Assembly: GCA_900315935.1 (NCBI GenBank)
Contig: ONBB01000001.1
Location: 124,001 to 188,000, forward strand
Reading direction: 5' to 3'
DNA: 64,000 bases
Source of the DNA: an uncultured Bacteroidales bacterium
GTDB taxonomy: Bacteria; Bacteroidota; Bacteroidia; Bacteroidales; P3
In this document: piece after piece, positions 6,252 through 63,815 of the stretch
How positions within the stretch are numbered: position 1 is the stretch's first letter
Layout: each line of letters starts with the position of its first letter
Position numbers and translations under genes: made by a program
Notes under the pieces: generated by a model
Told to the model about the DNA's origin: nothing
Seen by the model: the letters and a program-made list of their open reading frames with translations, nothing else
Database searches by the model: none

Positions 6252-6330
6252 TTCTCTAGGGGAGCGGTAGGGGAATACTAGGGGAATACTTCGGCTCTGG
6301 TAGCTGGTGGTAGCTTGTGGAACCCTACCC
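6252..6330. repeat. Dispersed intergenic element, copy A (diverged)
   Basis: This is the reverse-orientation form of the dispersed element with an 11-nt period. It opens with CTCTAGGGGAGCGGTAGGGG and continues with AATACTAGGGGAATAC; the distal half (GGTAGCTTGTGGAACCCTAC) is more diverged than in other copies. It lies between two convergent units, after the pseudouridine synthase. Confidence 0.75.
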
Positions 6331-6372
6331 TGCCAAAACCTTCCACATCCTACCAAACCAATACAAAAACAA

Positions 6373-6405
6373 GTTGTGGACCGCGGCAACGCCGCGGTCC
6401 ACAAC
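6373..6405. terminator. Perfect 15-bp GC-rich hairpin between convergent genes
   Basis: GTTGTGGACCGCGGC and its exact complement GCCGCGGTCCACAAC are separated by a 3-base loop (AAC). The plus-strand side continues into TTTCAATTTTCAATTTTC. It sits between the plus-strand pseudouridine synthase and the minus-strand gld operon, so a bidirectional terminator is the simplest reading. A REP-like mobile palindrome is an alternative. Confidence 0.55.
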
Positions 6406-6431
6406 CACTTTCAATTTTCAATTTTCAATTC

Positions 6432-6577
6432 TCATCTCATCACGACGATGCGCCGTGCCGAGCCGGTGCCTGCCCTCCGCGCTGGTAAATCTTGGCGCTC
6501 ACGCCATCCACGCCGTCGATGCCTTCGGTGGTGACGTAGATGGTGTCGTGGAGGTAGACGGTGTCGAAGATACTCAC
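6432..6577 (-). pseudogene. Remnant of a T9SS sorting-domain protein C-terminus
   Basis: Read on the minus strand just after the last gldN, this stretch encodes FDTVYLHDTIYVTTEGIDGV and then VSAKIYQRGG, which resembles the linker and first strand of Bacteroidota C-terminal sorting domains. The frame then stops at 6440. In the frame shifted by one base the same DNA ends GTGSARRIVVMR and stops at 6432, which is how such domains usually end. The middle of the domain is missing. I read it as a gene decayed by an internal deletion and frameshift. The only in-frame initiator is a GTG at 6577. Confidence 0.45.
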
Positions 6578-6595
6578 ATTAACAAATGGGGGAAA

Positions 6596-7462: not shown

Positions 7463-7471
7463 GACAAAAAA

Positions 7472-25000: not shown

Positions 25001-25073
25001 TTTTTTTTACTATTTTTTTTGAGGATATTTCTTTTGGGAAATGGGTGATTTCACACCCTCGCAGAAGTTAATG

Positions 25074-25143
25074 TACCATAAGCTTCCATATCCTTCCAGT
25101 GCCTTTGTATTCCCCTACCGTTCCCCTACCATTCCCCTAGAGG
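25074..25143. repeat. Dispersed 11-nt-period element, copy B
   Basis: Reads TACCATAAGCTTCCATATCC, then TTCCAGTGCCTTTGTA, then three 11-base cells of the type TTCCCCTACCN ending CTAGAG. Read on the minus strand, its CTAG supplies the TAG stop of the helicase gene. Confidence 0.9.
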
Positions 25144-27032
25144 GTCTGGATGAACTCGCCGTGGTGGCGGATGTGCTCCTGCAGCTCGCGGTAGAAGCGG
25201 TGGTGGCTCAGTGTCTGGGCGTTGCCTACTATAATAAGTTTCATGCGCGCACGAGTCATGGCGACGTTCATGCGGCGCAGGTCGCGCAGGAAGCCGATGT
25301 GCCCTTCGGCGTTGTCGCGCACCAGCGAGATGACAATCACGTCGCGCTCCTGCCCCTGGAAGCCGTCGACGGTGCCGACGGTGATGTGGCGGCGCAGCTT
25401 GCGGAAGTAGTGCTGCATCTTGAGCAGGCGGCGGATGAGGCGTGCCTGGCTGCGGTAGGGGGTGATGATGCCGAAGTCGATGCGCTCGGACTCGATCTTC
25501 TGTGGCGACAGCATGTCGATGTAGTCGCGCAGGGCGTGGATGACCAGCCGCGCCTCTTGGGCGTTGGTGAGGGAGCCGGTGTGGGTTCTCTTTTCTGGAT
25601 ATTCGGAGGATTCGGAATGTTCGGAGTTTTCGGAATGTTCTGATGTGTCGAGCCAGGTAAGCGGTGTGTCCAGGGGCGACACCATCCGTTGGGCGGCTTC
25701 GGGCGCGGCCTGCAGCTGGCCGTGGTAGAACCAGCGCGAGGGGAAGGCCATGATGTCCTCGTTCATGCGGTACTGTGTGGTCAGCAGGCTTACGCAGCGT
25801 GGATGTTGCGCCACCACCTTCTCCATCAGTGTCTTGGAGAGCCCTCCCTTGGCGGCGCCGAGGCTCTTCACGGTGGGTGGCAGCTGCTGGTGGTCGCCCC
25901 CCATCACCACGCGGTCGGCCCGCAGTATGGCGGCCCAGCAGGCGGGCTCCAGCGCCTGGGCGGCCTCGTCGATGAAGAGGGTGCTGAAGCGGCGACGCTC
26001 CATGAGGCGGTAGGCGCTGCCGATGAGGGTGCAGCTGACCACCCGTGCCTCCTCGAAGAGGTCGGCGTTGATTTTGATTTCCAGCTCGGTCTGCCGGTTG
26101 CGCAGGCGCTGGGCGCGTTCGCCACCGGCTCCTTCGCGCAGGGCCTTGCGGATGTTCCACAGCTCGTGGTAGTCGGGATGGGCCGAGTAGCGGCGCTCGT
26201 AGCTGCAGTCCAGCATCTCGTCGCTCATCCTCAACGGGTTGCCCACGCGCAGCACGTGCACCGAGCGGCGCATCAGCTGCTCGCTAATCCAGTCGACGGC
26301 GGCGTTGCTCGGCGCGCAGACCAGCACCTGTGCCTCGCGTTGCAGGGTCTCGATTATCGCCTCGACCAGGGTGGTGGTCTTGCCGGTGCCGGGCGGGCCG
26401 TGGATGATGCTCACCTCCTGGCACTCCACCACCTTCTGTATGGCGTCCTGCTGGCTGCGGTTGAGCCAGGGGAAGGAGAGGGCGGGCAGCTGGCGGAAGC
26501 CTGGCTGCGCCCGTCCCAGCAGCACGTCGCGCAGGCGCACGAACCGCTCGTCCTCGCGCCGTTCGGCGGCGGTGAGGGATTCAGTCATCACGCGGAACGA
26601 GGTGTTGTCCACCCCCAGCTGCACCCCCAGCAGGTGGCGGTCGGCCAGGGTGCGCAGGCTCTGCATGGCGGCCTGCGAGGGCACCGACAGGGTCATCCAG
26701 CCGTCGCCCACGCGTTCCACGTAGCACTGGTGCGGCACTTCGCGCGCACCGCTGTCTGTAAGGTAGAAGAGCGTTGTGGGGTGGCCGGGCTCGAAGTCCA
26801 GTTCGACCTCATCCTCGCTCACCTCGAAGCGCAGGTCTATTGTCAGTTGGTTCAGTGCGTTGCGGCCGCTGTTGCCTAGGGTGACAGGGTAGCGGCATGA
26901 GGGTTCGTGGATGGTGTTGCCGAAGGTGCCCATCCGACGCTCGAGGCTCCGCTGGTACGCCTGGCGCTCCTCCTCGAGCTCCATCGCCACCAGTTCCCGC
27001 AGACGGCTGAAGTATGTGCCGGTGTTTTCCAC
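25137..27032 (-). CDS. Superfamily 1B helicase, IGHMBP2/UPF1-like
   Basis: A 631-residue ATP-dependent nucleic-acid helicase. Motifs in order: Walker A GPPGTGKTTTLVE (residue about 211), TLFIDEAAQALEP (II), GDHQQLPPTV (III), QYRMNEDIMAFPS (IV), ITPYRSQARL, TVDGFQGQERDVIVIS (V) and RRMNVAMTRARMKLIIVG (VI). Bacteroidota carry one such protein of uncertain role in DNA or RNA metabolism. The start is a GTG, because the conserved N-terminus (YFSRLRELVAMELEEE) begins there, 5 bases after the HMA gene stop. An 18-residue Ser/Glu/His repeat (residues about 463-480, SEHSENSEHSESSEYPEK) interrupts the second RecA domain. The stop codon lies in the dispersed element. Confidence 0.9.
   Translation of the reverse strand: MENTGTYFSRLRELVAMELEEERQAYQRSLERRMGTFGNTIHEPSCRYPVTLGNSGRNALNQLTIDLRFEVSEDEVELDFEPGHPTTLFYLTDSGAREVPHQCYVERVGDGWMTLSVPSQAAMQSLRTLADRHLLGVQLGVDNTSFRVMTESLTAAERREDERFVRLRDVLLGRAQPGFRQLPALSFPWLNRSQQDAIQKVVECQEVSIIHGPPGTGKTTTLVEAIIETLQREAQVLVCAPSNAAVDWISEQLMRRSVHVLRVGNPLRMSDEMLDCSYERRYSAHPDYHELWNIRKALREGAGGERAQRLRNRQTELEIKINADLFEEARVVSCTLIGSAYRLMERRRFSTLFIDEAAQALEPACWAAILRADRVVMGGDHQQLPPTVKSLGAAKGGLSKTLMEKVVAQHPRCVSLLTTQYRMNEDIMAFPSRWFYHGQLQAAPEAAQRMVSPLDTPLTWLDTSEHSENSEHSESSEYPEKRTHTGSLTNAQEARLVIHALRDYIDMLSPQKIESERIDFGIITPYRSQARLIRRLLKMQHYFRKLRRHITVGTVDGFQGQERDVIVISLVRDNAEGHIGFLRDLRRMNVAMTRARMKLIIVGNAQTLSHHRFYRELQEHIRHHGEFIQTL
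25590..25646. repeat. In-frame short-word repeat inside the helicase gene
   Basis: Words of the type TTCGGAATG / TTCGGAGTT recur four to five times and encode the Ser/Glu/His insert of the helicase. The unit is close to 9 bases, so copy-number change would keep the frame. Confidence 0.65.
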
Positions 27033-35326: not shown

Positions 35327-35384
35327 CACCGCAATGGCTGCGAGTGTAGAGATGTGCAAGTGCCTTTGCAACAGTGCTTTGAAT

Positions 35385-37925: not shown

Positions 37926-37942
37926 GCCCTTTTTTTGGCCGA

Positions 37943-38026
37943 CCCTACCATAAGCTTCCATATCGTTCCAGTGCCTTTGTATTCCCCTACCGTTCCCCTA
38001 CCATTCCCCTACCGCTCCCCTAGAGG
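37943..38026. repeat. Dispersed 11-nt-period element, copy C
   Basis: CCATAAGCTTCCATATCGTT, CCAGTGCCTTTGTA, then four 11-base cells ending CTAGAG, one cell more than most copies. It occupies the first third of the 353-base gap before hndB. Confidence 0.9.
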
Positions 38027-38278
38027 GTGCCTGCGGAATGTTTTTCTCGATTTGAAAAATATTTTGTGTGTAAATTGCATATATACAAGTATTTGTGTTT
38101 GTCTTCGCCAGAAATGAGGAGGGGGTCACCAAAAATGGTGAGAAAATTTTTCAAAAAGTGCCTGCAGATTGTTTTTATTTTGTATATTTGCAGCATCCGA
38201 CGGTATCGGCTATGGTGTCGTAGGTTATTGTAAATCAATTAAATAAATATAATATTAATCCTAAACAAAAAGGACTTT
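38027..38278 (+). promoter_or_regulatory. Leader region of the hnd operon with a -7 box
   Basis: TATATTTG (38183-38190) fits the -7 consensus about 90 bases before hndB; the -33 is weak. A segment GTGCCTGCnGAnTGTTTTT occurs twice (38028-38046 and 38159-38177), and a small foldback TCACC-AAAAAT-GGTGA lies between. The duplication includes part of the promoter region. Confidence 0.45.
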
Positions 38279-38674
38279 ATGACAAAAGTTAAATCTTTGG
38301 CTGACCTGAAAGCCATGCGCGAGAAGCTCCAGTCGAACCTCGACGTCCGCGAGAAAGCGGAGAACCCCGAGGCCCTGGTGCAGGTCAAGGTAGCTATGGC
38401 CACCTGCGGCATCGCCGCCGGCGCCAAGCAGGTAATGGAACACATGATGCAGAAAGCCGACGAGCTGGGCATCGCCGCCGTCTTCACCCAGACGGGTTGC
38501 ATGGGCTACTGCCACGCCGAGCCCACCCTCGAGGTGCGCGTCCCCGGCAAGGACCCCATCGTCTTCGGCCACGTCGACAACAACCGCGCCGACGAAATCC
38601 TCACCAAGTACGTCAAGAACGGCGAACTCGTCGAGGGTATCATCCCCGTCAACTACGAAACGATTGACAAGTAA
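38279..38674 (+). CDS. hndB: NAD(P)-linked hydrogenase subunit HndB ([2Fe-2S])
   Basis: A 131-residue thioredoxin-like [2Fe-2S] protein, first of the hnd operon. A helical N-terminal segment (SLADLKAMREKLQSNLDVRE) is followed by VKVAMATCGIAAGA and the second Cys pair in TQTGCMGYCHAEPT. HndB is an electron-transfer subunit in the NADP-reducing or bifurcating hydrogenase of Solidesulfovibrio and Clostridia. Codons are strongly biased to C-ending forms, as in the other three subunits. Confidence 0.92.
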   Translation: MTKVKSLADLKAMREKLQSNLDVREKAENPEALVQVKVAMATCGIAAGAKQVMEHMMQKADELGIAAVFTQTGCMGYCHAEPTLEVRVPGKDPIVFGHVDNNRADEILTKYVKNGELVEGIIPVNYETIDK

Positions 38675-38678
38675 AATG

Positions 38679-38785
38679 GTTGATACGTTGATGGGTTTAT
38701 AGGTTGATACGTTCTTGCAACGTTCCGAGGGTTTCCCCCGACAACTTATCAACATGTCAACATATCAACATATCAACAGAAAGAA
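38679..38785. repeat. Inverted word array between hndB and hndC
   Basis: The left arm repeats GTTGATACGTTG / GTTGATACG, the right arm ATCAACATGTCAAC / ATATCAACATATCAAC. The arms are complementary around a central CCGAGGGTTTCCCCCG, and would form a long AU-rich stem in the operon mRNA. Confidence 0.7.
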
Positions 38786-38788
38786 ATT

Positions 38789-40603: not shown

Positions 40604-40626
40604 CATTTAATTAAGGATACATTAAT

Positions 40627-42393
40627 ATGATTAATCTCACCATAGATAACAAGCCGGTACAAGTCCCCGAAGGCACCACCATCCTCAAGGCTGCCCGCAT
40701 GGCCGGCATCGACATCCCGACGCTCTGCTATTTCGAGCTCGACGGAATGAAATTCGAAAACAAACCCGGTGGCTGCCGCGTCTGCATGGTCGAAGTGAAG
40801 GGTCGCCGCAACCTGGCCCCTGCCTGCGCCACCGACGTGATGGAAGGCATGGAGGTGCTCACCGCCTCCCCTCGCGCCCTCAACGCCCGCAAGACGGTCC
40901 TCGAGCTCATCCTCAGCGACCACCCCAACGACTGCCTCCAGTGCGAGAAGAGCGGCGACTGCGAGCTGCAGAACCTCGCCGCCCGCATGGGTATCCGCAA
41001 AATCCCCTTCACCGGCGAACAGACCACCTACGCCAAGGATAGCACCCTCAGCGTCTACCGCGACATGGACAAGTGCGTCTACTGCCGCCGCTGCGAGACC
41101 ATGTGCAACAAGTTCCAGACCGCCGGCGCCCTGAGCGGTGTCAACCGCGGCTTCCCCTCGGTCGTGGCTCCCGCCTTCGAGCAGGCCCTCGGCGACAGCA
41201 GCTGTATCAACTGCGGCCAGTGCGTCCAGGTCTGCCCCGTCGGCGCCCTCACCCTCGTCGACAATATCCAGAACGTCCTCGACGCCATCGCCGACCCCAC
41301 CAAGACCGTCGTCGTCCAGACCGCTCCCGCCGTCCGCGTCGCCCTCGGCGAAGAGTTCGGCATGGAGCCTGGCGAGATTGTTACCGGCAAGATGGCCGCC
41401 GGCCTCCGCCGCCTCGGCTTCGACCGCGTCTTCGACACCGACTGGAGCGCCGACCTCACCATCATGGAGGAAGGCACCGAGCTCCTCGGCCGCCTCAAGA
41501 AAGCCCTCGCCGGCGAAGAGGTCAAACTGCCCATGTTCACCTCCTGCTGCCCCGCCTGGGTCGCCTTCTACGAGAAGAACTTCCCCGACCTGCTCGAGTA
41601 CCCCTCGACCGCCAAGTCGCCCCAGGGTATGTTCGGCGCCGTCGCCAAGAACTTCCTGGCTCCCAAGATGGGTGTCAAGCGCGAGGATATGGTCGTCGTC
41701 TCCATCATGCCCTGCCTCGCCAAGAAGAGCGAGCTGGCACGCGAGGAGCTCAGCGTGAACGGCAACCGCGACGTTGACTTCAGCCTCACCACCCGCGAGC
41801 TGGCCCACATGCTCAAGCAGTGCAACATCGACCTCAACCAGCTGCCCGAAGAGGACTTCGACAACCCCCTCGGCCAGTCCACTGGTGCCGCTGTCATCTT
41901 CGGCGCCACTGGCGGCGTCATGGAGGCTGCCCTCCGCACCGCCTACGAGGTCCACACCGGCAAGACCCTCCCCCGCGTCGACTTCGAGGAGACCCGCGGC
42001 TTCCAGGGTATCAAAGAGGCCACCATCGACTTCGACGGCTTCCCCCTCAAGATTGCTGTGGCCTACAGCCTTGGCAACGCTCGCAAGCTGATGAACGAGG
42101 TGCGCGAAGGCAACCCCAACGGCTACCACTTCATCGAGGTCATGGCCTGCCCCGGCGGCTGCATCGGCGGCGCCGGCCAGCCCTACCACCACGGCAAGAG
42201 CGACATCGTGCGCCGTCGTATGGAAGCCATCTACCGCGAGGACGCTGGCAAGCCCATCCGCAAGAGCCACGAGAACCCCGACATTGTCGCTATCTACAAG
42301 GAGTACTACGGTGAACCCTGCGGCCACCTCAGCCACGAGCAGCTGCACACCCACTACTTCGACCGTAGCGACAAAATCGAGGCAACGAAATAA
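40627..42393 (+). CDS. hndD: [FeFe] hydrogenase catalytic subunit HndD (group A)
   Basis: A 588-residue catalytic subunit. The N-terminus has a plant-type [2Fe-2S] domain (GGCRVCMVEV with upstream LCYF) and the His/Cys cluster motif HPNDCLQCEKSGDCELQ. Two ferredoxin clusters follow (CVYCRRCETMC, CINCGQCVQVCP), then a complete H-cluster domain: L1 FTSCCPAWV, L2 IMPCLAKKSE, L3 EVMACPGGCIGGAGQP. A C-terminal small-subunit segment (YKEYYGEPCGHLSHEQLHTHY) completes it. All proton-transfer and ligand residues are intact, so this is the main H2-evolving or -consuming enzyme here. The gap to hndC is 23 bases. Confidence 0.97.
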   Translation: MINLTIDNKPVQVPEGTTILKAARMAGIDIPTLCYFELDGMKFENKPGGCRVCMVEVKGRRNLAPACATDVMEGMEVLTASPRALNARKTVLELILSDHPNDCLQCEKSGDCELQNLAARMGIRKIPFTGEQTTYAKDSTLSVYRDMDKCVYCRRCETMCNKFQTAGALSGVNRGFPSVVAPAFEQALGDSSCINCGQCVQVCPVGALTLVDNIQNVLDAIADPTKTVVVQTAPAVRVALGEEFGMEPGEIVTGKMAAGLRRLGFDRVFDTDWSADLTIMEEGTELLGRLKKALAGEEVKLPMFTSCCPAWVAFYEKNFPDLLEYPSTAKSPQGMFGAVAKNFLAPKMGVKREDMVVVSIMPCLAKKSELAREELSVNGNRDVDFSLTTRELAHMLKQCNIDLNQLPEEDFDNPLGQSTGAAVIFGATGGVMEAALRTAYEVHTGKTLPRVDFEETRGFQGIKEATIDFDGFPLKIAVAYSLGNARKLMNEVREGNPNGYHFIEVMACPGGCIGGAGQPYHHGKSDIVRRRMEAIYREDAGKPIRKSHENPDIVAIYKEYYGEPCGHLSHEQLHTHYFDRSDKIEATK

Positions 42394-42404
42394 ATTAATC
42401 CGTT

Positions 42405-42498
42405 TATGGTTTACGGTTTAAGGTTTAAGGGAGCTGGCGCGACCGAAAACCGAAGCCCCTTAAACTTTAAACCTTAAACCTTAAACCTTAAACAAAAA
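42405..42498. repeat. Inverted heptamer array between hndD and hndA
   Basis: The left arm is GGTTTACGGTTTAAGGTTTA, the right arm CTTAAACTTTAAACCTTAAA with further ACCTTAAACC units. A GC-rich loop (GGAGCTGGCGCGACCG) lies between. Complementarity is long enough for a stable stem ahead of hndA. Confidence 0.75.
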
Positions 42499-42503
42499 GA
42501 AAA

Positions 42504-42980
42504 ATGGCAAACATCAAGTTATCCGAAGATAAAATCAACGTCATCAAAGAGATTGCGAAGTCCTTTGGTAACAACAGCGGCGAGGTCATCAATGTGCTGC
42601 ACCAGGTGCAGGGCAAGTTCGGCTATCTGCCCGCCGAAGTCCAGGAGGTCATTGCCCACGAGCTGAACATGCCCGTGGCCAAGGTCTATGGCATCGTTTC
42701 GTTCTACAGCTTCTTCACCATGGAGCCCAAGGGCGAGCACCCCATCGACATCTGCCTCGGCACCGCCTGCTACGTGCGTGGCGCCGAGAAGGTGCTCGAC
42801 GCCTTCGCCCGAGCCCTCAATGTCGAGGTTGGCAAGTGCACCGCCGACGGCAAGTTCTCGCTGAACACGCTGCGCTGCGTGGGTGCCTGCGGTCTGGCCC
42901 CCGTGGCCATGATTGGCGAGAAGGTCTACGGCCGCCTCACCCCCGACATGGTTCCCGGCATCATTGCCGAGTACAAATAA
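42504..42980 (+). CDS. hndA: Hydrogenase subunit HndA (NuoE-like [2Fe-2S])
   Basis: A 158-residue NuoE-type subunit. A helical N-terminal half (VLHQVQGKFGYLPAEVQEVI) precedes the thioredoxin-like [2Fe-2S] domain with ligands in CLGTACYVRGA and CVGACGLAPV. It relays electrons between the NAD(P)H site on HndC and the rest of the complex. In the first described operon the order is hndA-B-C-D; here hndA is last and separated from hndD by a 110-base spacer with a foldback. A strong terminator follows. Confidence 0.95.
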   Translation: MANIKLSEDKINVIKEIAKSFGNNSGEVINVLHQVQGKFGYLPAEVQEVIAHELNMPVAKVYGIVSFYSFFTMEPKGEHPIDICLGTACYVRGAEKVLDAFARALNVEVGKCTADGKFSLNTLRCVGACGLAPVAMIGEKVYGRLTPDMVPGIIAEYK

Positions 42981-43027: not shown

Positions 43028-43084
43028 CCTATTTTGTATTTTGCTGATTGTTAGTGTTGTATGTGGAGTATGGAAAGTATAGGG

Positions 43085-43153
43085 TACCATAAGCTTCCAT
43101 ATCCTTCCAGTGCCTTTGTATTCCCCTAGAGATCCCCTACCGTTCCCCTAGAA
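43085..43153. repeat. Dispersed 11-nt-period element, copy D
   Basis: TACCATAAGCTTCCATATCC, TTCCAGTGCCTTTGTA and three 11-base cells; the first two carry CTAGA and GAT variants. It sits between the hnd terminator and the 3' end of a minus-strand gene. Confidence 0.88.
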
Positions 43154-43254
43154 GGTGCTCTTTGCTGTCCTGCGAAAAATATCACAACCGCTAATTATAA
43201 AATATCTGAACTTGAATGCGGTATGTGGTGATGTAGGTGAGTGGGGGGGCGTAA

Positions 43255-46087: not shown

Positions 46088-46507
46088 TTACCCCAGAAAG
46101 CTTTGCAGTGCCAGCTCGTAGCCTTGGAGGCCGAGGCCGCAGATGAGGCCGCGGCAGGCGGAGGTGATGTAGGAGTGGTGTCGGTAGTCCTCGCGTGCGA
46201 AGATGTTGGAGAGGTGGACTTCGATTTTGGGAGTTGGTACGGCGAGGAGTGCGTCGCGCAGTGCGACGGAGGTGTGGCTGTAGCCGCCGAGGTTGACTAT
46301 GAGGCCGTCGGCCTCGAAGCCGAGGTGCTGGATGAGGTCGATGAGTTGGCCTTCCACATTGCTCTGGTGGTAGGTGATTTGCACGTCTGGGTGTGCGTTG
46401 CGCAGCTGGTCGAGGTATTGCTCGAAGGTGATGGCGCCGTAGACCTCGGGCTCGCGTCGGCCGGTGAGGTTGAGGTTGGGTCCGTTGATGATGGCTATTT
46501 TTTTCAT
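46088..46507 (-). CDS. aroQ: Type II 3-dehydroquinate dehydratase
   Basis: A 139-residue enzyme dehydrating 3-dehydroquinate to 3-dehydroshikimate in aromatic amino-acid synthesis. IINGPNLNLTGRREPEVYG carries the catalytic Arg and Tyr loop; HQSNVEGQLIDLIQ and the C-terminal HHSYITSACRGLICGLGLQGY are standard. The usual NPGAYTHTS motif reads NLGGYSHTS, keeping the Asn and His but losing the Pro. Shikimate kinase lies elsewhere in the window (63313). Confidence 0.94.
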   Translation of the reverse strand: MKKIAIINGPNLNLTGRREPEVYGAITFEQYLDQLRNAHPDVQITYHQSNVEGQLIDLIQHLGFEADGLIVNLGGYSHTSVALRDALLAVPTPKIEVHLSNIFAREDYRHHSYITSACRGLICGLGLQGYELALQSFLG

Positions 46508-46653
46508 TGCGTTAGTGCGTTAATGCGTTATTTTCAAGGGTAAACTGGTAAATGGTAAAACGTGGGTTGGGTGGGATTATTGTGTGTATTTTTTTGCTGC
46601 TGTGCAATAAAGCGTTACTGAGTGCGTTAATGCGTTAGTGCGTTAATGCGTTA
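46508..46653. repeat. Spacer with GCGTTAATG word arrays
   Basis: Nine-base words GCGTTAATG / GCGTTAGTG recur directly next to aroQ (46508-46532) and again just before the M64 peptidase (46622-46650). Between them lie about 90 bases with nothing recognised. Confidence 0.7.
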
Positions 46654-47913
46654 ATGTTTATGAAAATGTTTAAGGTTATAGGTTATAGTTTAAAGATTAT
46701 AGGCTGCGCTTTGGTTTTCTGCCTGCCGATGGAGGCAGGGGCGCAGAAGGTGAAGTTCTCGAAGTACTTTACCGGCGGCACTTTGCGAATCGACTGTTCG
46801 CGAGAGGGCGATGCGCGGGGCGACACGGTGTGGGTGAGCCGGTGGCTGGACCGGTCGGCGGAGTGGCACGGGAGCCGGACGCAGCTGATTGACCCGTTCG
46901 ACAACGGGGACTACCGTGTGGAGATGCGGGATGCGAAGAGCGGTCAGGTGATTTACAGCCGCGGTTACAGCAACCTGTTCCGAGAGTACAGGGAGACGCC
47001 GAAGGGTCGCAAGGAGAAGGCGCGTTTCGAGGAGACGCTGCTGCTGCCGATGCCGAGGAGGGCGGTGAAGATTGCCCTTCAGCGGCGCGACAAGGATATG
47101 CGGCTGGTGGACGGTACGGTGGTGGACTTCAATCCCGCCAAGGATACGCTCTATTTCAACTACCATATCGGCGAGCGCACTGACCTGGAGCTGAACGGGG
47201 ACCCGAAGGAGAAGGTGGACGTGGTGATTGTGGCGCAGGGTTACGAGCCAGAGGATCCGCAGCTGCGCATCGACTATTACCGCATGAAGGAGATTCTCTT
47301 CGGCCAGGAGCCTTTTTTGTCGCACCGCAAGGATTTCAACGTCTACGGTGTGTGTGCGGATGTGGAGGCGGGGTTCGGCACTTTCGGCATCGACCGCTAC
47401 CTGATGACGTTCAGTGTGTGGAAGTTGCACGATGCGCTGGGCACCACGCCGGCGGACCATATCATTATCATGGTGAACAGCGACACATACGGTGGCGGTG
47501 CGATTTATAACTTCTACGCTGTGAGTTCGATGCACCGTTTGGCGGAGTATGTGCTGCCGCATGAGTTGGGGCATTCGATAGGTGGGCTGGCCGACGAGTA
47601 TGTCGACGAGGACCTCTCCTACGGCGACCTGCACCGCACGGCCTACGAGCCGCTGGAGCCGAATATCACGAATCTGAAGGATTTCGGCTCGAAGTGGCAG
47701 TCGATGCTGCCGGCCGGCACGCCTGTGCCGACGCCGGAGGATGCGGGAGCGCCGAAGTCCGAGTGCGGCCCGCTGGGGGTGTACGAGGGTGCGGGATACG
47801 CCTCGAAGGGGGTCTACCGCCCTGTGATGCACTGCATGATGCGCGATTATGCGCCATTCTGCCCGGTGTGCAGGAAGCGCATGGAGGAGGTGTTTAAGCT
47901 GTATACCAGATGA
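46654..47913 (+). CDS. Secreted M64-family (IgA-protease-type) metallopeptidase
   Basis: A 419-residue protein. After a signal peptide, an N-terminal M64 domain (residues about 30-160, TLRIDCSREGDARGDTVWVS) precedes the peptidase domain, with the zinc site HELGHSIGGLADEY near residue 303 (HExxH plus downstream Asp/Glu). The C-terminus has two Cys pairs (MHCMMRD, FCPVCRKRM). Homologues in Bacteroides cleave host proteins, including IgA. The first 20 codons resemble those of the following lipoprotein gene at DNA level. Export is probably by Sec to the periplasm or surface; no sorting domain is present. Confidence 0.9.
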   Translation: MFMKMFKVIGYSLKIIGCALVFCLPMEAGAQKVKFSKYFTGGTLRIDCSREGDARGDTVWVSRWLDRSAEWHGSRTQLIDPFDNGDYRVEMRDAKSGQVIYSRGYSNLFREYRETPKGRKEKARFEETLLLPMPRRAVKIALQRRDKDMRLVDGTVVDFNPAKDTLYFNYHIGERTDLELNGDPKEKVDVVIVAQGYEPEDPQLRIDYYRMKEILFGQEPFLSHRKDFNVYGVCADVEAGFGTFGIDRYLMTFSVWKLHDALGTTPADHIIIMVNSDTYGGGAIYNFYAVSSMHRLAEYVLPHELGHSIGGLADEYVDEDLSYGDLHRTAYEPLEPNITNLKDFGSKWQSMLPAGTPVPTPEDAGAPKSECGPLGVYEGAGYASKGVYRPVMHCMMRDYAPFCPVCRKRMEEVFKLYTR

Positions 47914-47985
47914 TTAAGGTTTAAGGTTTAGGGTTTAGGGTTTAATGTTTAAGTTTAAAGTTTAAGGTTTAATGTTTAATGTTTA
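47914..47985. repeat. Direct array of TTTAAGG / TTTAATG words
   Basis: GGTTTAAGG, GGTTTAGGG and GTTTAATG words repeat directly up to the start codon of the next gene, whose ATGTTTAAGG is itself one more unit. Confidence 0.75.
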
Positions 47986-49269
47986 ATGTTTAAGGTTGTA
48001 GGTTGCGCGTTGCTTTTTGCCGGCTTGCTTTTGGCGGCGGGCTGCAGGGAGGAGGGTTTTGTGGTGGATGACGGGAGGGTGGAGCTTTCCTTTTCGTCTG
48101 ACACGCTGACTTTTGACACCGTATTTGCCACCGTCGGCACGGCGACGCGCCGCGTTACGGTTTACAACCGCACGCCCGACCACCTGCGCCTCTCCTCGGT
48201 TACGCTTGAGGGGGGGCGCGCGAGCCGTTTCCGCCTGAATGTGGACGGCGATACGTCGCTGGTGGCGAGGGATATAGAAATTGAGTCGGGCGATAGTGTC
48301 TTCATCTTTGTCCAAGCTCATATCAACCCCAACGACGCGCGGGAGCCTTTCCTGGTGGAGGATGCGATTGTGTTCAGCAACGGGCAGCGGCTGCCGCTGA
48401 CGGCGTGGGGGCGCAATGCGGTGTATCATAGGCTGTTGCCTACGGACAGCACCTGGTTCACGGCTATCGACTGCGAGGGGTGGGACCACACGCTGCCGCA
48501 TGTCTTTGTCGATCCCGCGGCGGTGCTGGAGGGCAACACGTTGACGCTGACGGCGGGCGACGAGCTCTACTTCGCCGACGGTGCGCTGCTGGTGGTCGAC
48601 TCCGCCGCGCGCCTCATCGCACAGGGGACGGCGGAGCGGCCGGTGCTCTTCACGTCGCTGCGCCAGGACGGCTGGTACCGTTTCCTCCCTGGCCAGTGGC
48701 AGACGGTGTGGTTCTACAACCACAGCGTGGGCAACGTGATCGACCACGCCGTGGTGGAGAACGCGGTCGGCGGCCTGCGCGGCTATCCGGGCTCGGAGGT
48801 GCGGGTTACGAACACGGTGGTGCGCAATATGTCGGACTGCGGCATCATCGGCCAGGGTGCGACTATCAGCGGTCGCAACTTGCTGGTCTACGACTGCTAC
48901 GCCTCGCTGACGGTGCTCACGGGCGGCAGCTACGACTTCGCGCAGTGCACCTTTGCCAACTATTGGACTTACAATGTACGCAAGATTGAGACGGTGGTGC
49001 TTTCCAACTGCATGACGACGCAGGGTGGCGTGGTGGGCGGCCACCTGCAGCGTGCCAACTTCGAGGACTGCATTGTCTGGGGCAGCTACCACGGCGGCGA
49101 GCTGCTGCTGAACGCGATTCCGGGCTACGAGATGAACTACAGTTTCCGCAACTGCATCGTGCGCGGCGGCGACCGCGACGAGGACCCCCTGTTCACGGAC
49201 CCGAAGGAAGACGACTACACGCTGCAAGAGGGGAGCCCGGCGGCGGGCATCGGATATTCATTCTATTAA
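47986..49269 (+). CDS. Lipoprotein with right-handed beta-helix fold
   Basis: A 427-residue predicted lipoprotein; the signal peptide ends LLLAAGC. Residues about 30-130 resemble an immunoglobulin-like domain (LTFDTVFATVGTATRRVTVYN). The rest contains parallel beta-helix rungs (VIDHAVVENAVGGLRGY, VTNTVVRNMSDCGIIGQ, FEDCIVWGSYHG) ending with a DPLFTDPKEDDYTLQEGSPA motif common in such families. It may bind a surface glycan. Its start codon and first codons derive from the repeat array just before it. Confidence 0.85.
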   Translation: MFKVVGCALLFAGLLLAAGCREEGFVVDDGRVELSFSSDTLTFDTVFATVGTATRRVTVYNRTPDHLRLSSVTLEGGRASRFRLNVDGDTSLVARDIEIESGDSVFIFVQAHINPNDAREPFLVEDAIVFSNGQRLPLTAWGRNAVYHRLLPTDSTWFTAIDCEGWDHTLPHVFVDPAAVLEGNTLTLTAGDELYFADGALLVVDSAARLIAQGTAERPVLFTSLRQDGWYRFLPGQWQTVWFYNHSVGNVIDHAVVENAVGGLRGYPGSEVRVTNTVVRNMSDCGIIGQGATISGRNLLVYDCYASLTVLTGGSYDFAQCTFANYWTYNVRKIETVVLSNCMTTQGGVVGGHLQRANFEDCIVWGSYHGGELLLNAIPGYEMNYSFRNCIVRGGDRDEDPLFTDPKEDDYTLQEGSPAAGIGYSFY

Positions 49270-49436
49270 AGTTTTTTGGTCGGCCTTCGGCCTCAAAATT
49301 AAAAGAAAATTTATTCAGAAAATATTAAAGTTTTGTGGTCGGCCTTCGGCCTCAAAATTATAAAAAAATTCATTCAGAAAAAAGTTTTGTGGTCGGCCTT
49401 CGGCCTCAAAATTATAAGAAAATTATTGAAAATTGT
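49270..49436 (+). repeat. Three tandem copies of a ~56-base unit before ruvA
   Basis: Units start at about 49270, 49328 and 49382, each AAAGTTTTGTGGTCGGCCTT, CGGCCTCAAAATTA, then an A/T-rich tail ending near ATTCAGAAA. The GGCCTTCGGCC core can form a tiny hairpin. The array fills the entire gap between the lipoprotein gene and ruvA. A frame open through it into ruvA is considered accidental. Confidence 0.85.
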
Positions 49437-50040: not shown

Positions 50041-50151
50041 TGCCCCGCCTCCATCTGGCAGCGTTTCCTTCGGCGGATAGTGATTATGTGTTGTAATTCA
50101 CTGAAGTTGAGAAGGATGTGTTTCTGTTGTTTTTTTTCTCTAGCCATTACT

Positions 50152-50222
50152 GTACCATAAGCTACCATATCCTTCCAGTGCCTTTGTATTCCCCTACCGT
50201 TCCCCTACCATTCCCCTAGGGA
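50152..50222. repeat. Dispersed 11-nt-period element, copy E
   Basis: TACCATAAGCTACCATATCC, TTCCAGTGCCTTTGTA, then three TTCCCCTACCN-type cells ending CCCTAG. It lies between ruvA and sprA, 97 bases before the proposed sprA start. Confidence 0.9.
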
Positions 50223-50318
50223 ACCCGGGTGGATGGGGTGGAAAAAATGTGTCATTTTTATATTCGCGTACAATATAAGGGGCGAGGTTGCGTTTATGGT
50301 GGGTTAAAACAGTCTGAA

Positions 50319-57437: not shown

Positions 57438-58874
57438 ATGAAAAAAGATAGATTCAATGACTTCGACAAAGAGGTGCGCGACCTGGTGCTGGACTTCGAG
57501 CGCACTGTGCTCAAAGGCGAGCGCCAGTTCTACGACATCGACGAGCTGGAGGTAATCATCGACTACTACCTCGAGGTCAACGACCAGGAACCCCTCGAGC
57601 AGGCCATCCGCTATGCCGAATACCTATACCCCGACAGCACCGAGGTGCGCATCCGCCGCGCCCACCAGCTTATCTCGCAGCAGTTTGTGGAAATGGCGAT
57701 AGACCTCCTGCAGGAGCTGCGCGAGCGCGAGCCCGACAATACGGACATCGCCTACTCCCTCGGCGTGGCATACGGCGCCAAGGACGAGCCCGAGAAGGCC
57801 ATCTCGCTCTACGAGGAGGCCCTCGCCGACGGATGGATGCCCGGCCGCGTATACTCCAACATCGCGGAGGAGTACTACAAACTGGCCGACTACCCCCAGG
57901 CCATCGCCTACTACGAGATGGCGCTCCACTACGACCCGGGCGACGAGGTGTCGATCTACAACTATTACGATACCTGCCTCATCGCCCGCCGTCTGGAGCA
58001 GGCCGTTACCACCCTGACCGACCTCACCAAGAAGGATCCCTACAACCGGCATGCCTGGTACGTACTGGGTATGGCCCAGCGCGAGCTCGGCCTTTACGAC
58101 CGTGCGGCCGACGCGCTGCAGTTCGCCATTGCCATCGACAAGTCGTTCGTCGATGCCTACGTGGCCCTCTCGCAGGTGCAGGACCTCGCCGGCGACACGC
58201 CGCAGGCCGTTACCACCATGCTCCGCCTGCTGGACCATACCGACATGCACGACCGCGTCTACCGCACGGTGGGCAACCTCTACGCCCGCGACGGCAACTT
58301 CGACACCGCCATGCTCTACTACCGCAAGGCCATCGACCACAACCCCGCCGATGCCGAAGCCTTTGCCGCCAGCGGCATGTGCTACCTGCACCTGGGCGAC
58401 CTCCCGTCGGCGCTGGCCTCGGTGCGCAAGGCGCTCAACCTGGAGGACGCACTCGTCGAGCAGCGGGGCGACGGAGGCGATGCCGAGGTGTTCTTCGCTG
58501 CCGCCCTCGTGCACGATGCCGCCGGGCATTTCGACATGGCATCCGAATGCTACGAGCGCATGATTCTCGCCCAGAACTGCAACGAAGCGCAGTGCCAGGC
58601 GTATACCCAGTTCCTCTTCGACCACCAGGTATACGATATCCTCATCGAGTTCGGCGAGGAGTCGCTCGCCCTCTACCCGCGCGACACCTTCTACAGCACC
58701 TACCTCGCCGCCGCCTACTTCTACACCAACCGCTACAACAAGGCACGCAAGATGCTGCCCGATGTCGACCCGCAACTTCTGTCCGAACTCTGTCCCGGCA
58801 TTATAGCCCACCCCCTCCTCGGCCCCCTCGTTCCACCACCCGCCGACCCGAAGGACCCTCTAGGGGAATGGTAG
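57438..58874 (+). CDS. Tetratricopeptide-repeat protein
   Basis: A 478-residue cytoplasmic protein without a signal peptide, made almost entirely of TPR helices (ALADGWMPGRVYSNIAEEYYKL, AWYVLGMAQRELGLYDRAAD, AEAFAASGMCYLHLGDLPSA). TPRs mediate protein-protein contacts; the partner is unknown. It starts 6 bases after sprA, and this association suggests a link with secretion or envelope assembly, by inference only. The last four residues (LGEW) and the TAG stop are read from the dispersed element, so the ancestral end has been overwritten. Confidence 0.87.
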   Translation: MKKDRFNDFDKEVRDLVLDFERTVLKGERQFYDIDELEVIIDYYLEVNDQEPLEQAIRYAEYLYPDSTEVRIRRAHQLISQQFVEMAIDLLQELREREPDNTDIAYSLGVAYGAKDEPEKAISLYEEALADGWMPGRVYSNIAEEYYKLADYPQAIAYYEMALHYDPGDEVSIYNYYDTCLIARRLEQAVTTLTDLTKKDPYNRHAWYVLGMAQRELGLYDRAADALQFAIAIDKSFVDAYVALSQVQDLAGDTPQAVTTMLRLLDHTDMHDRVYRTVGNLYARDGNFDTAMLYYRKAIDHNPADAEAFAASGMCYLHLGDLPSALASVRKALNLEDALVEQRGDGGDAEVFFAAALVHDAAGHFDMASECYERMILAQNCNEAQCQAYTQFLFDHQVYDILIEFGEESLALYPRDTFYSTYLAAAYFYTNRYNKARKMLPDVDPQLLSELCPGIIAHPLLGPLVPPPADPKDPLGEW

Positions 58875-58932
58875 GGGAACGGTAGGGGAATACAAAGGCA
58901 TTGGAAGCTTATGGAAGCTTATGGAACCCTAG
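58855..58932. repeat. Dispersed 11-nt-period element, copy F (reverse orientation)
   Basis: CCTCTAGGGGAATGGTAGGG begins the element, which then runs through TACAAAGGCATTGG to a doubled GGAAGCTTAT and ends AACCCTAG. It provides the stop codon of the TPR gene (TAG at 58872-58874). Confidence 0.92.
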
Positions 58933-61046: not shown

Positions 61047-61502
61047 ATGGCCACTGCACTCGTCAAAATTGATGTACATTTGGTTTTCCATGTGAAATCA
61101 ACATTGAAGACCATAAGAAAAGAAGATAAAACCCGTCTTTATGAATATATAGGCGGCATCATTAAGTCCATGGGTGGCATCCCGATGGGGATTGGTGGTA
61201 CGGAAGACCATGTTCACATATTGTTTTCCCTCCCCAAGTCGTCATCAATCGCCGAATGTGCCAAGGTAATCAAATCCAAATCCAGTTTGTGGATAAAGAC
61301 GATAGATACCTACTACTCAATGTTTTCGTGGCAGGAAGGATATGGGGCATTCTCTGTGAGTCCCACGTTGTTGGATAAAACAAGAGCCTATATACAGAAT
61401 CAAGAATCTCACCACATAAAGAGGACGTTCCGGGAGGAATGTATGATGTTTGCGAAGGCTTATAATGTTGAGTTTGATGAAAAGTACATGTTTGTTGAAT
61501 AG
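61047..61502 (+). CDS. tnpA: IS200-like Y1 transposase (REP-associated type)
   Basis: A 151-residue HUH-family single-strand transposase. The metal motif HVH is in GGTEDHVHILFSLP (near residue 54), and the catalytic Tyr is probably in KTRAYIQNQESHH (near residue 115). The C-terminus ECMMFAKAYNVEFDEKYMF is typical of the Bacteroidota group. It is intact. Codons are A/T-rich, unlike recN and sufS on either side, indicating recent arrival. The start overlaps the inner edge of the left flank. Confidence 0.92.
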   Translation: MATALVKIDVHLVFHVKSTLKTIRKEDKTRLYEYIGGIIKSMGGIPMGIGGTEDHVHILFSLPKSSSIAECAKVIKSKSSLWIKTIDTYYSMFSWQEGYGAFSVSPTLLDKTRAYIQNQESHHIKRTFREECMMFAKAYNVEFDEKYMFVE

Positions 61503-61511: not shown

Positions 61512-61593
61512 GCCCCTCCGGGGCTTGGGCGCTTGTGGCATTGTTTGTGCAGGGAATGAATTCCCTGCCTGTACTCCTGCGCCCCTCCGGGGC
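61512..61593 (-). repeat. Right REP-like flank of the transposon
   Basis: GCCCCTCCGGGGC (61512-61524), GCAGGGAAT-GA-ATTCCCTGC (61549-61568) and GCCCCTCCGGGGC (61581-61593). The reverse complement of the outer 45 bases aligns with 60954-60998, including the linker GGAnTACAGGCAGGGAAT. Confidence 0.85.
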
Positions 61594-61621
61594 GAAATCC
61601 CACCGATAAAACCATTTGTGC

Positions 61622-63277
61622 ATGCTGACTAATTTACACATAGAGAACTATGCCCTTATCCGCGAGAGCGATATCCAGTTTGGCCAAGGCTTCGTGGCCA
61701 TCACCGGTGAGACCGGCGCGGGTAAGAGCATCCTGCTGGGTGCCCTTGGACTGTTGCTCGGCCAGCGGGCTGATGCGGCAGTGCTGGCCGACAAGGGGAA
61801 GAAGTGCGTGGTAGAGGCCCGTTTCGACATCGAAGGGCTCGGCCTGCAACCCCTCTTCGACGAGGCCGACGTGGACTACGACGACACCCTCATCCTCCGC
61901 CGCGAGATACTCCCTTCGGCCAAGAGCCGCGCCTTCGCCAACGACACACCCGTCCAGCTGCCCTTCCTCAAGCAGCTGGGTGCCAGGTTGATTGACATCC
62001 ACTCGCAGCACCAGACCCTCACCCTGGGCGACAGCGCGTTCCGCCTGAACCTGCTCGACACACTCTCGGGCGGCACCGAGCGCCAGCGCTACGAGGATGC
62101 CTACCGCACCTACTCGCACCTCAAGCGCGACCTGGAGGAGCTGACCGCCGCCGAGGCTCAGAACCGCAAAGAGCAGGATTACCTGCAGTTCCAGTTCGAC
62201 GAACTCAACGAGGCGCGGCTGCAGCCCGACGAGCAGGCATCGCTGGAGCAGGAGTCGCAGCTGTTGGCCCATGCCGAGGCCGTGCGCGAGGGCATAGCCA
62301 CTGCCGCCGCTGCGGTGGACGACGAGACGGAGCAGTCCGTCCTTGCCCGCCTGCGACAGGCCAAGTCGGCGCTGGGTCATGTGGCACAGTACCATCCCCA
62401 GGCCGACGAACTGCTGAAACGGCTGGAATCGAGCCTGATAGAGCTTGACGACATCAACTCCGAACTGCAGTCGGCCGCCGCCGGCATCACCTACAGCCCC
62501 GAACGCCAGCAGGAGGTCGACGACCGCCTGGCGCTGCTCTACCGCCTGCAAAAGAAGCATGGTGTGGACTCCGTGGCAGCACTCATCCAGTTGCGCGACG
62601 AGCTGGACCAACGCCTGCAGGGCATCTCCACCCTAGACGAGCGCATACAGACCCTCATGGAGGAGGTTGACAAGGCATTTGCACAGGTTCAGCAAACGGC
62701 CGACCGCCTCACCGCCAGCCGCACCAAGGCGGGCCGCCTGCTGGAGAAAAACATACTGCCCACCCTGCATGAGCTGGGCATGCCCGAGGCGCGCTTCGAA
62801 GTGGAAATCAGGACGATGGCCACCTACGGCGCCACGGGACACGACACGGTTGCCTTCCTCTTCAACGCCAACCGGGGCGGCGAGCTGCGCGACGTGGCCA
62901 AAGTGGCCAGCGGCGGCGAGTTGTCGCGGCTGATGCTGGCGGTCAAGAGCATGCTCACCAGCCACTCGCTGCTGCCCACCGTCATCTTCGACGAGATAGA
63001 CACCGGCGTCAGTGGCGACATCTCCGTGGCCGTCGGCACCATCATGCAGCGCATGGCCCAGCGGATGCAGGTCGTTGCCATCACCCACCTGCCACAGATT
63101 GCCGCACGGGCCTCGCAGCACCTCAAGGTATACAAGCAGACGACTGACGACCGCACCGTGTCGCGCATCCGCGAACTTGAGCCCCTGGAACGTGTTACCG
63201 AGGTCGCCACCATGCTCTCCTCTGACCCACCCACCAAGGCCGCACTCCAGACCGCCAAGGAGCTTATGTCGTTATAA
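61622..63277 (+). CDS. recN: DNA repair protein RecN
   Basis: A 551-residue SMC-like ATPase acting at double-strand breaks. Walker A is GETGAGKSILLGALGLLLG (near residue 30). A central coiled coil (residues about 150-370) precedes the ABC signature KVASGGELSRLMLAVKSM and Walker B TVIFDEIDTGVSG, then VVAITHLPQIAARA. Length is standard. The ATG at 61622 gives the usual N-terminus (LTNLHIENYALI); the frame extends two codons upstream to a TTG. Confidence 0.96.
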   Translation: MLTNLHIENYALIRESDIQFGQGFVAITGETGAGKSILLGALGLLLGQRADAAVLADKGKKCVVEARFDIEGLGLQPLFDEADVDYDDTLILRREILPSAKSRAFANDTPVQLPFLKQLGARLIDIHSQHQTLTLGDSAFRLNLLDTLSGGTERQRYEDAYRTYSHLKRDLEELTAAEAQNRKEQDYLQFQFDELNEARLQPDEQASLEQESQLLAHAEAVREGIATAAAAVDDETEQSVLARLRQAKSALGHVAQYHPQADELLKRLESSLIELDDINSELQSAAAGITYSPERQQEVDDRLALLYRLQKKHGVDSVAALIQLRDELDQRLQGISTLDERIQTLMEEVDKAFAQVQQTADRLTASRTKAGRLLEKNILPTLHELGMPEARFEVEIRTMATYGATGHDTVAFLFNANRGGELRDVAKVASGGELSRLMLAVKSMLTSHSLLPTVIFDEIDTGVSGDISVAVGTIMQRMAQRMQVVAITHLPQIAARASQHLKVYKQTTDDRTVSRIRELEPLERVTEVATMLSSDPPTKAALQTAKELMSL

Positions 63278-63312
63278 CTACTTGACTACTGACTGCTTAA
63301 CTACTGGAAAAG

Positions 63313-63798
63313 ATGAAATACTACCTCGTCGGATACATGTACAGCGGCAAGAGCACCTTCGGCCCCTGCCTGGCGGCGGCCAAGGGGTTGGCCTTTGTGG
63401 ATCTGGACAAAGCCTTCGAGGCCAAGTACCACTACGAGGTGGCGCGCTTCTTCGAGGTCTTCGGCGAGGATGCCTTCCGCAAGCTGGAGACCCAGATGCT
63501 GCATGCCACGGCCGACCTCGACAACATCGTCATCTCCACCGGCGGCGGCACCCCCTGCTACGGCGACAACATGGATTTCATACTCGAGCACGGCACCGCC
63601 ATCTACCTCCAGATGAGCGTCGACGCCTTGGTCGAGCGCGCCCTGCGCAGCCGCCACGTGCGCCCCAAGCTCCACGGCCTGCCCGAACCCGAGATGCGCG
63701 CCGCCATCGGCACACAGCTCGCACAACGCGCCCCTATCTACCTCCGCGCCCCCATCGTCCTGGACGGCACCGCCCCCAGCGTGGAGGCCATCCCCTAG
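63313..63798 (+). CDS. aroK: Shikimate kinase
   Basis: A 161-residue P-loop kinase. Walker A is GYMYSGKSTFG. The DLD of FVDLDKAFE and GGG of ISTGGGTPC are shikimate-binding signatures, and the Arg of RALRSRHVRP lies in the lid. It phosphorylates shikimate in aromatic amino-acid synthesis. The protein is slightly shorter than usual at the C-terminus; its final stop (CCCTAG) is read from a fragment of the dispersed 11-nt element, so some terminal residues may have been lost. Confidence 0.88.
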   Translation: MKYYLVGYMYSGKSTFGPCLAAAKGLAFVDLDKAFEAKYHYEVARFFEVFGEDAFRKLETQMLHATADLDNIVISTGGGTPCYGDNMDFILEHGTAIYLQMSVDALVERALRSRHVRPKLHGLPEPEMRAAIGTQLAQRAPIYLRAPIVLDGTAPSVEAIP

Positions 63799-63815
63799 GA
63801 ACCGCTAGGGGAATA
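63790..63815. repeat. Fragment of the dispersed 11-nt-period element (copy G)
   Basis: ATCCCCTAGGAACCGCTAGG then GGAATA. The cells are degenerate and the distal half is absent. It supplies the TAG of the shikimate kinase gene. Confidence 0.5.

What the first reader, a model, noticed from the sequence alone, without database searches (positions are those of the whole stretch)
6252..63815. Dispersed intergenic element built on an 11-nt period
Six copies and one fragment (6252, 25074, 37943, 43085, 50152, 58855, 63790) share the order CCATAAGCTTC / CATATCCTTCC / AGTGCCTTTGT followed by three or four cells of the form TTCCCCTACCN. The whole element, not only the obvious tandem part, reads in 11-base cells, close to one helical turn. 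Cell number varies between copies (copy C has four). Both orientations occur, and all copies lie in spacers. No encoded protein or REP-type palindrome explains it. It may be a phased protein-binding site, a terminator or a non-autonomous repeat.
Basis: seen in the sequence. Interest (0 to 1): 0.82.

Follow-up and report, generated by a model that had tools for sequence, protein, structure and literature searches.

The report
Species-specific 11-base intergenic repeat elements
About a hundred gaps between genes in this bacterium carry the same built-up DNA repeat with an 11-base beat, and related species often carry a repeat of similar design but different sequence in the same gaps, which hints that the spacing may matter more than the letters.

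Summary
The element is modular: a head (10+10+13/14 nt) plus, mostly, three or four 11-nt cells. No clear terminal inverted repeat and no fixed target duplication were found. Relatives are more telling than the window. Of 24 elements taken from sister species G083, at least 12 share a spacer with a G000 element: 5 with the same head, each beside a stretch of 98-100% identity, and 7 with a different head on a similar tail. Head stocks differ by species. Spacers from G000 and 50 congeners carry tandem arrays of period 7, 8, 9 and 11. Period 11 was found in 41 spacers, none a short intra-operon one, and the unit mostly differs between species. I read it as a BOX/BIME-like interspersed mosaic repeat under concerted evolution, which keeps its place at operon boundaries and its one-helical-turn period rather than its sequence. 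A DNA-level architectural role is favoured but unproven; a tolerated selfish repeat is nearly as likely. Terminator, MITE, RAYT and quadruplex readings fit worse.

The parts
6250..6327 (-). element copy, diverged type A head, 3 tail cells
   Evidence: TTCCCCTA cells at 6257-6286
25070..25146 (+). element copy, canonical type A head, 3 tail cells; by the gene calls its CCCCTAG supplies the TAG stop of the minus-strand gene on its right
37942..38028 (+). element copy, type A head, 4 tail cells; orthologous spacer compared in other genomes
43081..43157 (+). element copy, type A head, AGAGA variant between cells; no element seen by eye in the orthologous spacer of G083 and G094
50149..50225 (+). 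element copy, type A head; G083 has a type B element in the same spacer
58855..58931 (-). element copy, type A head with two CCATAAGCTT cells; overlaps the 3' end of the gene before it
63790..63900 (-). interrupted element: palindromic type B head (63870-63899) and degenerate tail cells (about 63790-63821)

Best explanation
SHOWN: an interspersed mosaic repeat. A head module (type A: two 10-nt cells; types B and C: palindromes) joins through a 13/14-nt junction to 11-nt tail cells (mostly three or four), at about 100 sites in G000, between genes or at gene ends. In a sister species elements of the same plan share at least 12 of the spacers, often with another head. INFERRED: copies are homogenised within a genome by copying modules from one copy onto another (gene-conversion-like concerted evolution) and reach other species by ordinary recombination of flanking DNA. 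INFERRED function: the tail works at the DNA level, as a stretch repeated once per helical turn at the edge of a transcription unit. Any 11-nt unit repeated in phase adds its bends, or presents one face to a nucleoid protein, so the letters may drift while the period stays.
For: 100 merged places, 52 with both a head and a tail hit. 85 of 100 rows lie within 10 differences of the 65-nt consensus; 182 of 231 variable site pairs show all four combinations, as mosaics would. Orientation: 54 of 65 co-directional copies are sense (p 6e-8); in divergent spacers the sense gene is nearer in 15 of 19; a TAnnTTTG box lies within 150 nt downstream in sense in 41 of 100, against 6, 7 and 12 in the three control positions. 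Head exchange at shared sites: 12 aligned G000/G083 pairs, 5 same head and 7 different. Adjoining 200-nt windows (upstream/downstream) of the same-head pairs: 100/80, 99/100, 98/98, 94/98, 78/98% identity; of the different-head pairs 68-91%. Type B head hits: G000 10, G083 78, G094 74, G051 0. Period 11 peaks in spacers (46 arrays; 0 in coding sequence, 0 in shuffles), with 8 at period 10 and 1 at 12. Period 11 is found in 41 spacers, none a short intra-operon one. At one orthologous boundary spacer 13 of 50 genomes have 11 as best period, and none of 118 intra-operon spacers has. A bend model with recalled parameters gives mean z +1.0 for 41 11-nt arrays and -0.25 to -0.58 for 7/8/9.
Against: No helical phase coherence between element and -7 box (approximate Rayleigh p 0.2 to 0.5, n 41). 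In G083 the promoter asymmetry is weak: 9 downstream-sense against 7 upstream-antisense of 24. In other species 14 of 39 arrays have an outward -7 box within 150 nt against 29% at random positions of the same spacers. The bend result follows partly from the period itself. Indels are not clearly rarer than in flanking spacers (14:468, or 13:83 distinct, against 33:354). 26 of 100 copies have an antisense gene on their 3' side. At spacer A 33 of 50 genomes have no array at the threshold used and 4 have another period. Conversion itself was not observed.
Confidence: 0.4

Rival explanations
1. Tolerated selfish repeat: the element spreads by an unknown duplicative route and survives only in the free gap between one unit's 3' end and the next promoter. 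The 11-nt unit reflects how tandem copies arise, not a function.
For: Median distance 56 nt to the upstream stop and 127.5 nt to the downstream start in 54 co-directional sense cases. Some copies supply a neighbour's stop codon. Nine downstream proteins are of unrelated kinds (picked by eye). Spacers of the genus are full of other tandem arrays.
Against: The orientation bias (54 of 65) and the split of period by spacer class need a cause. Sites are shared while heads differ.
Confidence: 0.36
2. Sequence-specific platform for a fast-evolving multi-domain DNA-binding protein that contacts one helical turn per cell; protein and sites co-evolve in each species.
For: The 10-10-13-11-11-11 plan is seen in G000, G051 and G094 with different letters. 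Species-specific homogenised sequence.
Against: No candidate protein was sought or found; nine downstream proteins show no common theme. At the same spacer an operator-like palindrome TCACCAAAAATGGTGA is kept, exactly or with small changes, in 8 of 11 printed genomes while the arrays are not.
Confidence: 0.1
3. Rho utilisation site or other transcription terminator for the upstream gene.
For: Sense strand 40.7% C and 11.6% G, weakly structured; 69 of 99 copies are sense to the upstream gene.
Against: 30 copies are antisense to the upstream gene; C>G in only 14 of 25 arrays of other species; runs of six T are equally common within 100 nt up- and downstream, 22 and 22 of 100.
Confidence: 0.06
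4. Mobile element moved in trans by a transposase (MITE) or by a RAYT such as the Y1_Tnp gene in this window.
For: Y1_Tnp in 11 of 15 genomes of the genus searched, one at window 61047-61502. Types B and C heads are palindromes. The tail's GTAGGGG recalls REP GTAG heads: a lead only.
Against: Inverted termini barely above shuffles (mean best 6.1 of 12 against 5.4) and no target duplication at a fixed boundary (top offsets cover 4 to 18 of 95). The window RAYT is flanked by its own palindromes, GCCCCNNNGGGGCGNAGGA, not by the element. Three CCTACC-rich genomes (G009, G036, G085) gave no Y1_Tnp hit (G036 is 78% complete).
Confidence: 0.05
5. G-quadruplex element on the purine strand.
For: A fold with quadruplexes allowed gains about 11 kcal/mol on the antisense strand of a typed four-cell consensus (-23.4 against -12.4).
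Against: Many 11-nt units of other species lack runs of three or more G or C.
Confidence: 0.03

Closest known systems
BOX elements (boxA-boxBn-boxC) of streptococci (PMC3049150, passages read)
   Same: Modular intergenic repeat in tens of copies, variable number of a middle module; in S. suis the same boxB is found between different end modules, like the head exchange here.
   Different: BOX is predicted to fold into a stem-loop; type A here is weakly structured. BOX modules are longer than 11 nt (recalled for boxB). Species-wide exchange of heads at shared sites and an 11-nt period were not in the passages I read.
BrickBuilt minisatellite-bearing MITE of Porphyromonas gingivalis (PMC4596501, abstract and passages read)
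   Same: Leader + tandem array + tail, always intergenic; a Bacteroidales species (recalled).
   Different: 23-nt unit, 19 copies, IS-like terminal inverted repeats; none clear here.
REP/BIME with RAYT (PMC2817692, abstract and passages read)
   Same: Dispersed, often mosaic intergenic units in high copy number, with different REPs in different species.
   Different: Type A is not a palindrome; the RAYT of this window carries other palindromes at its flanks.
Heptamer arrays: TAACTGA repeats (PMC4679880) and GGGAATC / GGGGA(T/C)T repeats (PMC4692102), passages read
   Same: Many short intergenic tandem arrays; in Xanthomonas mostly between the same genes in two related organisms, with length and sequence variation.
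   Different: Unit 7, one sequence family per genome in what I read, no head module. The 7/8/9-nt arrays of this genus resemble these more than the 11-nt element does.
About 11-bp dinucleotide periodicity of E. coli intergenic DNA (PMC516772, abstract read)
   Same: Period near one helical turn, stronger between genes.
   Different: A statistical dinucleotide signal, not a discrete repeated unit.

Membership tests
MITE | terminal inverted repeats | tested here: not met
   mean best 6.1 of 12 against 5.4 in one shuffle per copy, 95 copies; slightly above chance, far from a perfect arm
MITE | target site duplication at a fixed boundary | tested here: not met
   the top rows of 2448 offset/length combinations cover 3 to 18 of 95 copies, with no consistent boundary
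REP/BIME mobilised by RAYT | palindromic unit | tested here: inconclusive
   type A none seen, types B and C yes
REP/BIME mobilised by RAYT | same repeat flanks a RAYT gene in the genome | tested here: inconclusive
   not met at the window Y1_Tnp gene (both flanks seen). Of G000's 4 Y1_Tnp matches 2 were fetched, and of the second only one flank was printed; in several other minus-strand loci the ORF shown is not the transposase frame
BOX-like interspersed mosaic repeat | dispersed intergenic copies with variable number of internal modules | tested here: met
   (three cells in 51, four in 45, other numbers in 4 of 100 by the script)
BOX-like interspersed mosaic repeat | stable RNA stem-loop | tested here: not met
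   typed sense consensus, -5.0 kcal/mol
BOX (streptococcal family proper) | homology to boxA/boxC | not tested
   no sequence comparison made
Rho utilisation site | C-rich, G-poor sense RNA downstream of a gene | tested here: inconclusive
   composition met in G000, not genus-wide
Known RNA family | Rfam model match at gathering threshold | tested here: not met
   only a cobalamin riboswitch in the window

The most novel reading that the evidence does not exclude
A sequence-free physical punctuation of the chromosome: in this genus operon boundaries are marked by DNA repeated once per helical turn (11 bp) and intra-operon junctions by 7-, 8- or 9-nt arrays. Each species keeps the period and the place while rewriting the letters at a hundred sites in concert.
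Probability: 0.2. Interest if true: 0.9.

Novelty: new variant of a known kind. Interest (0 to 1): 0.7.

Why it matters
Bacterial spacers are usually read as promoters, operators and terminators with fixed letters. Here species of one genus seem to keep a repeat period and a position while exchanging the sequence, with different periods inside and between operons. That makes two questions testable by comparison and by simple reporters: whether the period of spacer DNA is itself under selection, and how about a hundred dispersed 80-bp elements are kept alike in one bacterial genome.

Tried and rejected
Rejected or unsupported. Classical MITE: no clear inverted termini or fixed duplication. RAYT mobilisation: the window Y1_Tnp gene is flanked by its own palindromes. 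Rho/terminator: not genus-wide. Regulon: nine downstream proteins are of unrelated kinds, one of them DUF3127; but I picked them by eye from 24 printed of 33 that qualified, because most looked recognisable, so this is a weak test. Quadruplex: a feature of G-rich units. Fixed phase to the -7 box: none. Indel test for spacing constraint: inconclusive. A first promoter count on G083 used a too narrow pattern (6 of 24 elements) and was redone. Viral contigs: no exact match to the two-cell tail. Genome contigs: three, of which two, from other phyla or families, were not followed up. Paper searches for this or a similar repeat listed no description of this element; most subscription papers are not held.

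Limits. Genes were called with a home-made codon model trained on the window. The 130-nt cut between intra-operon and other spacers was chosen after seeing the list. Orthologous spacers of related species are not independent. One of the 100 rows (L054) was mis-anchored and was left in the counts (if sampled). One search used 95 rows (L041, L048, L053, L054, L064 dropped); one search used 97 (L048, L053, L054 dropped). One search used 50 of 100 copies. Several listings were cut by the tool, so 100 copies is a lower bound. One search scores only the best period of each spacer, and its 'spacer A' is up to 400 nt before the gene, which may include coding sequence. The 24 G083 elements were chosen by the TTCCCCTACC tail and are a part of what G083 has (78 type B head hits). 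G094 and G051 elements were seen only in part.
Full report
CHECK. The seven window copies are real and non-random. The head pattern has 5 window matches and the tail pattern 12; 100 dinucleotide-preserving shuffles gave 0 for each (sequences). In the whole genome (G000, 2.29 Mb, 31 contigs) the tail pattern with one mismatch has 197 matches and the head pattern with three mismatches 76; reversed-pattern controls gave 0. Merging the listed hits gives 100 places (52 head and tail, 24 tail only, 24 head only). I fetched all 100 with flanks.

ANATOMY. The aligned copies show a 5' edge (TA..GTA), cells CCATAAGCTT and CCATATCCTT, the junction CCAGTGCCTTTGTA, then 11-nt cells TTCCCCTACCN, and a looser 3' end, either TAGAGAACCC/TAGAGGGT or ACCG... 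So 10+10+13/14 then n x 11, not 11 throughout. By the script 51 copies have three cells, 45 have four and 4 have another number. Tail ending and context are linked: ACC-type endings have a -7 box downstream in 23 of 37, AG-type in 12 of 50 (Fisher p 4e-4; 13 other endings left out). Variable sites are shuffled between copies: four combinations in 182 of 231 site pairs. No clear inverted termini and no fixed target duplication were found (95 copies).

CONTEXT. Of 100 copies, 54 lie between two sense genes, 19 between divergent genes, 15 between convergent genes, 11 between two antisense genes, and 1 has no gene called on the left. Among co-directional spacers 54 of 65 are sense (p 6e-8). A TAnnTTTG box (the Bacteroidetes -7 motif, recalled) lies within 150 nt downstream in sense in 41 of 100; downstream antisense 6, upstream sense 7, upstream antisense 12. 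31 of the 41 distances are 32-72 nt, with no helical phase. When the right-hand gene is antisense, the tail often abuts its stop codon, and some copies supply a neighbour's TAA or TAG. 17 of 100 overlap a predicted gene. Nine downstream proteins, picked by eye, are of unrelated kinds: enolase, class II tRNA synthetase, EF-Tu-like GTPase, MutS, SHMT, a Glu/Leu/Phe/Val dehydrogenase, a class-V aminotransferase, NadA, DUF3127.

RELATIVES. The two-cell tail (up to one mismatch) is in 5 of 120 genomes of the genus, but only G000 (197 hits) and G083 (33) have more than one. G083 elements come with three heads: type A as in G000, a palindromic type B and a palindromic type C. I examined 24 of them. 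Twelve were aligned with a G000 element in the same spacer: five pairs share the head, seven have different heads on a similar tail (a thirteenth, L040/L147, was seen but not aligned). For the other twelve I did not have the G000 counterpart. The 200-nt windows just before and after the anchor have 100/80, 99/100, 98/98, 94/98 and 78/98% identity in the same-head pairs and 68-91% in the different-head pairs, in part because the heads themselves differ. Farther out some different-head pairs also reach 94-99% (L069/L148), so the tracts are patchy. I infer that type A copies in G083 are mostly recent imports by recombination. Type B head hits: G000 10, G083 78, G094 74, G051 0 (a few are both strands of one palindrome). 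In that listing the G094 heads run into GAGTC in 61 of the 62 rows shown (of 74), the G083 ones mostly into GCC or ACC, with 3 of 78 in GTC. Copies within a species are thus more alike than copies between species, the mark of concerted evolution. Not every site is kept: in spacer B (43085) I saw no element in G083 or G094.

GENUS-WIDE PATTERN. The looser pattern CCTACCN5CCTACC is in 58 of 120 genomes, with 69 to 227 hits in seven congeners (G009, G036, G070, G079, G083, G085, G094) against reversed-control counts of 0 to 10; in G014 and G108 the control exceeds the pattern (100 against 13, 17 against 1), so they have another motif. Outside the genus 70 genomes of 11 genera gave at most 2 hits each. 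In several species the 11-nt arms form long palindromes instead of head+tail. I then took one orthologous region from 50 congeners. In 465 spacers (170 kb, window included) tandem arrays have period 7 (65), 8 (24), 9 (26), 10 (8), 11 (46), 12 (1); scaled coding sequence gave at most 2.7 per period and none at 11, shuffles none. Period goes with spacer class. Short co-directional spacers (<130 nt, n 182) hold 69 spacer-period counts of 7/8/9 and none of 11; the other 283 spacers hold 29 and 41 (Fisher p 2e-16; cut chosen, spacers not independent). At spacer A, 13 of 50 genomes have 11 as best period, 4 another, 33 none at the threshold; the units mostly differ, though G086 and G100 share one and G000, G094 and G036 share a CCTACC core. 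In the three intra-operon spacers none of 36, 42 and 40 has period 11 as best. At the same spacer A the palindrome TCACCAAAAATGGTGA is kept, exactly or with small changes, in 8 of 11 printed genomes (cut off in G083, not seen in G102 and G103), so the arrays turn over where an operator-like site does not.

MECHANISM. I favour a DNA-level role for the 11-nt period at transcription-unit boundaries, with the letters free to drift and module copying keeping the set alike. A simple bend model with recalled parameters makes 11-nt arrays more bent than shuffles (mean z 1.0, 41 arrays) and 7/8/9 arrays less bent; this follows partly from the period. Against it: no phase to the -7 box and weak promoter asymmetry in G083 (9 against 7 of 24), no clear promoter enrichment in other species (14 of 39 against 29% at random), and an inconclusive indel test. 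The neutral selfish reading is nearly as good. Terminator, MITE, RAYT and quadruplex readings fit worse.

KNOWN KINDS. BOX elements are the best structural parallel (PMC3049150, passages read). BrickBuilt of Porphyromonas is the nearest in taxonomy (PMC4596501, abstract and passages). REP/BIME-RAYT (PMC2817692) and heptamer arrays (PMC4679880, PMC4692102) were read in passages, and E. coli intergenic 11-bp periodicity (PMC516772) in abstract. None of what I read describes shared sites and a shared period with species-exchanged sequence. The paper searches made are listed under Tried and rejected.

Noticed in passing
window 61047-61502: Y1_Tnp (RAYT-like) transposase gene of 151 aa flanked by its own palindromes (GCCCCNNNGGGGCGNAGGA at 61026, 61506, 61575) and by CAGGGAAT..ATTCCCTG palindromes in inverted array (I18).
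   Followed up: partly
window 38674-38789 and 42393-42504; L170:10759-10860, L210:8892-9000: Short intra-operon spacers across the genus often carry species-specific 7-, 8- or 9-nt tandem arrays, in some cases as an inverted pair that could fold into an RNA hairpin.
   Followed up: partly
window 46500-46660 and 47908-48009: Longer spacers of this window also hold 8-nt (TGCGTTAA) and 7-nt (GTTTAAG) arrays, so the 7/8/9 class is not confined to short spacers.
   Followed up: no
window about 38126-38141: Palindrome TCACCAAAAATGGTGA upstream of the operon at 38315-42980, kept in 8 of 11 genomes printed; looks like a true operator.
   Followed up: no
window 49264-49435: Three tandem copies of a 59-nt unit with GGTCGGCCTTCGGCC before a gene.
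   Followed up: no
L133/L145 (G000/G083): A 98-100% identity tract of about 1.2 kb between two species ends at the element and drops to 80% and then 65% beyond it.
   Followed up: partly
L242, L244, L249, L256, L268 (G070, G085, G079): CCTACC 11-mers arranged as long palindromes around CATGG/GTGG/GCGG centres, a different architecture of the same motif.
   Followed up: no
G014 and G108: The reversed control pattern (CCATCC at 11-nt spacing) outnumbers the CCTACC pattern, 100 to 13 and 17 to 1, suggesting another 11-nt motif in these species.
   Followed up: no
window 35382-35578: Cobalamin riboswitch (Rfam RF00174, 96.6 bits).
   Followed up: no
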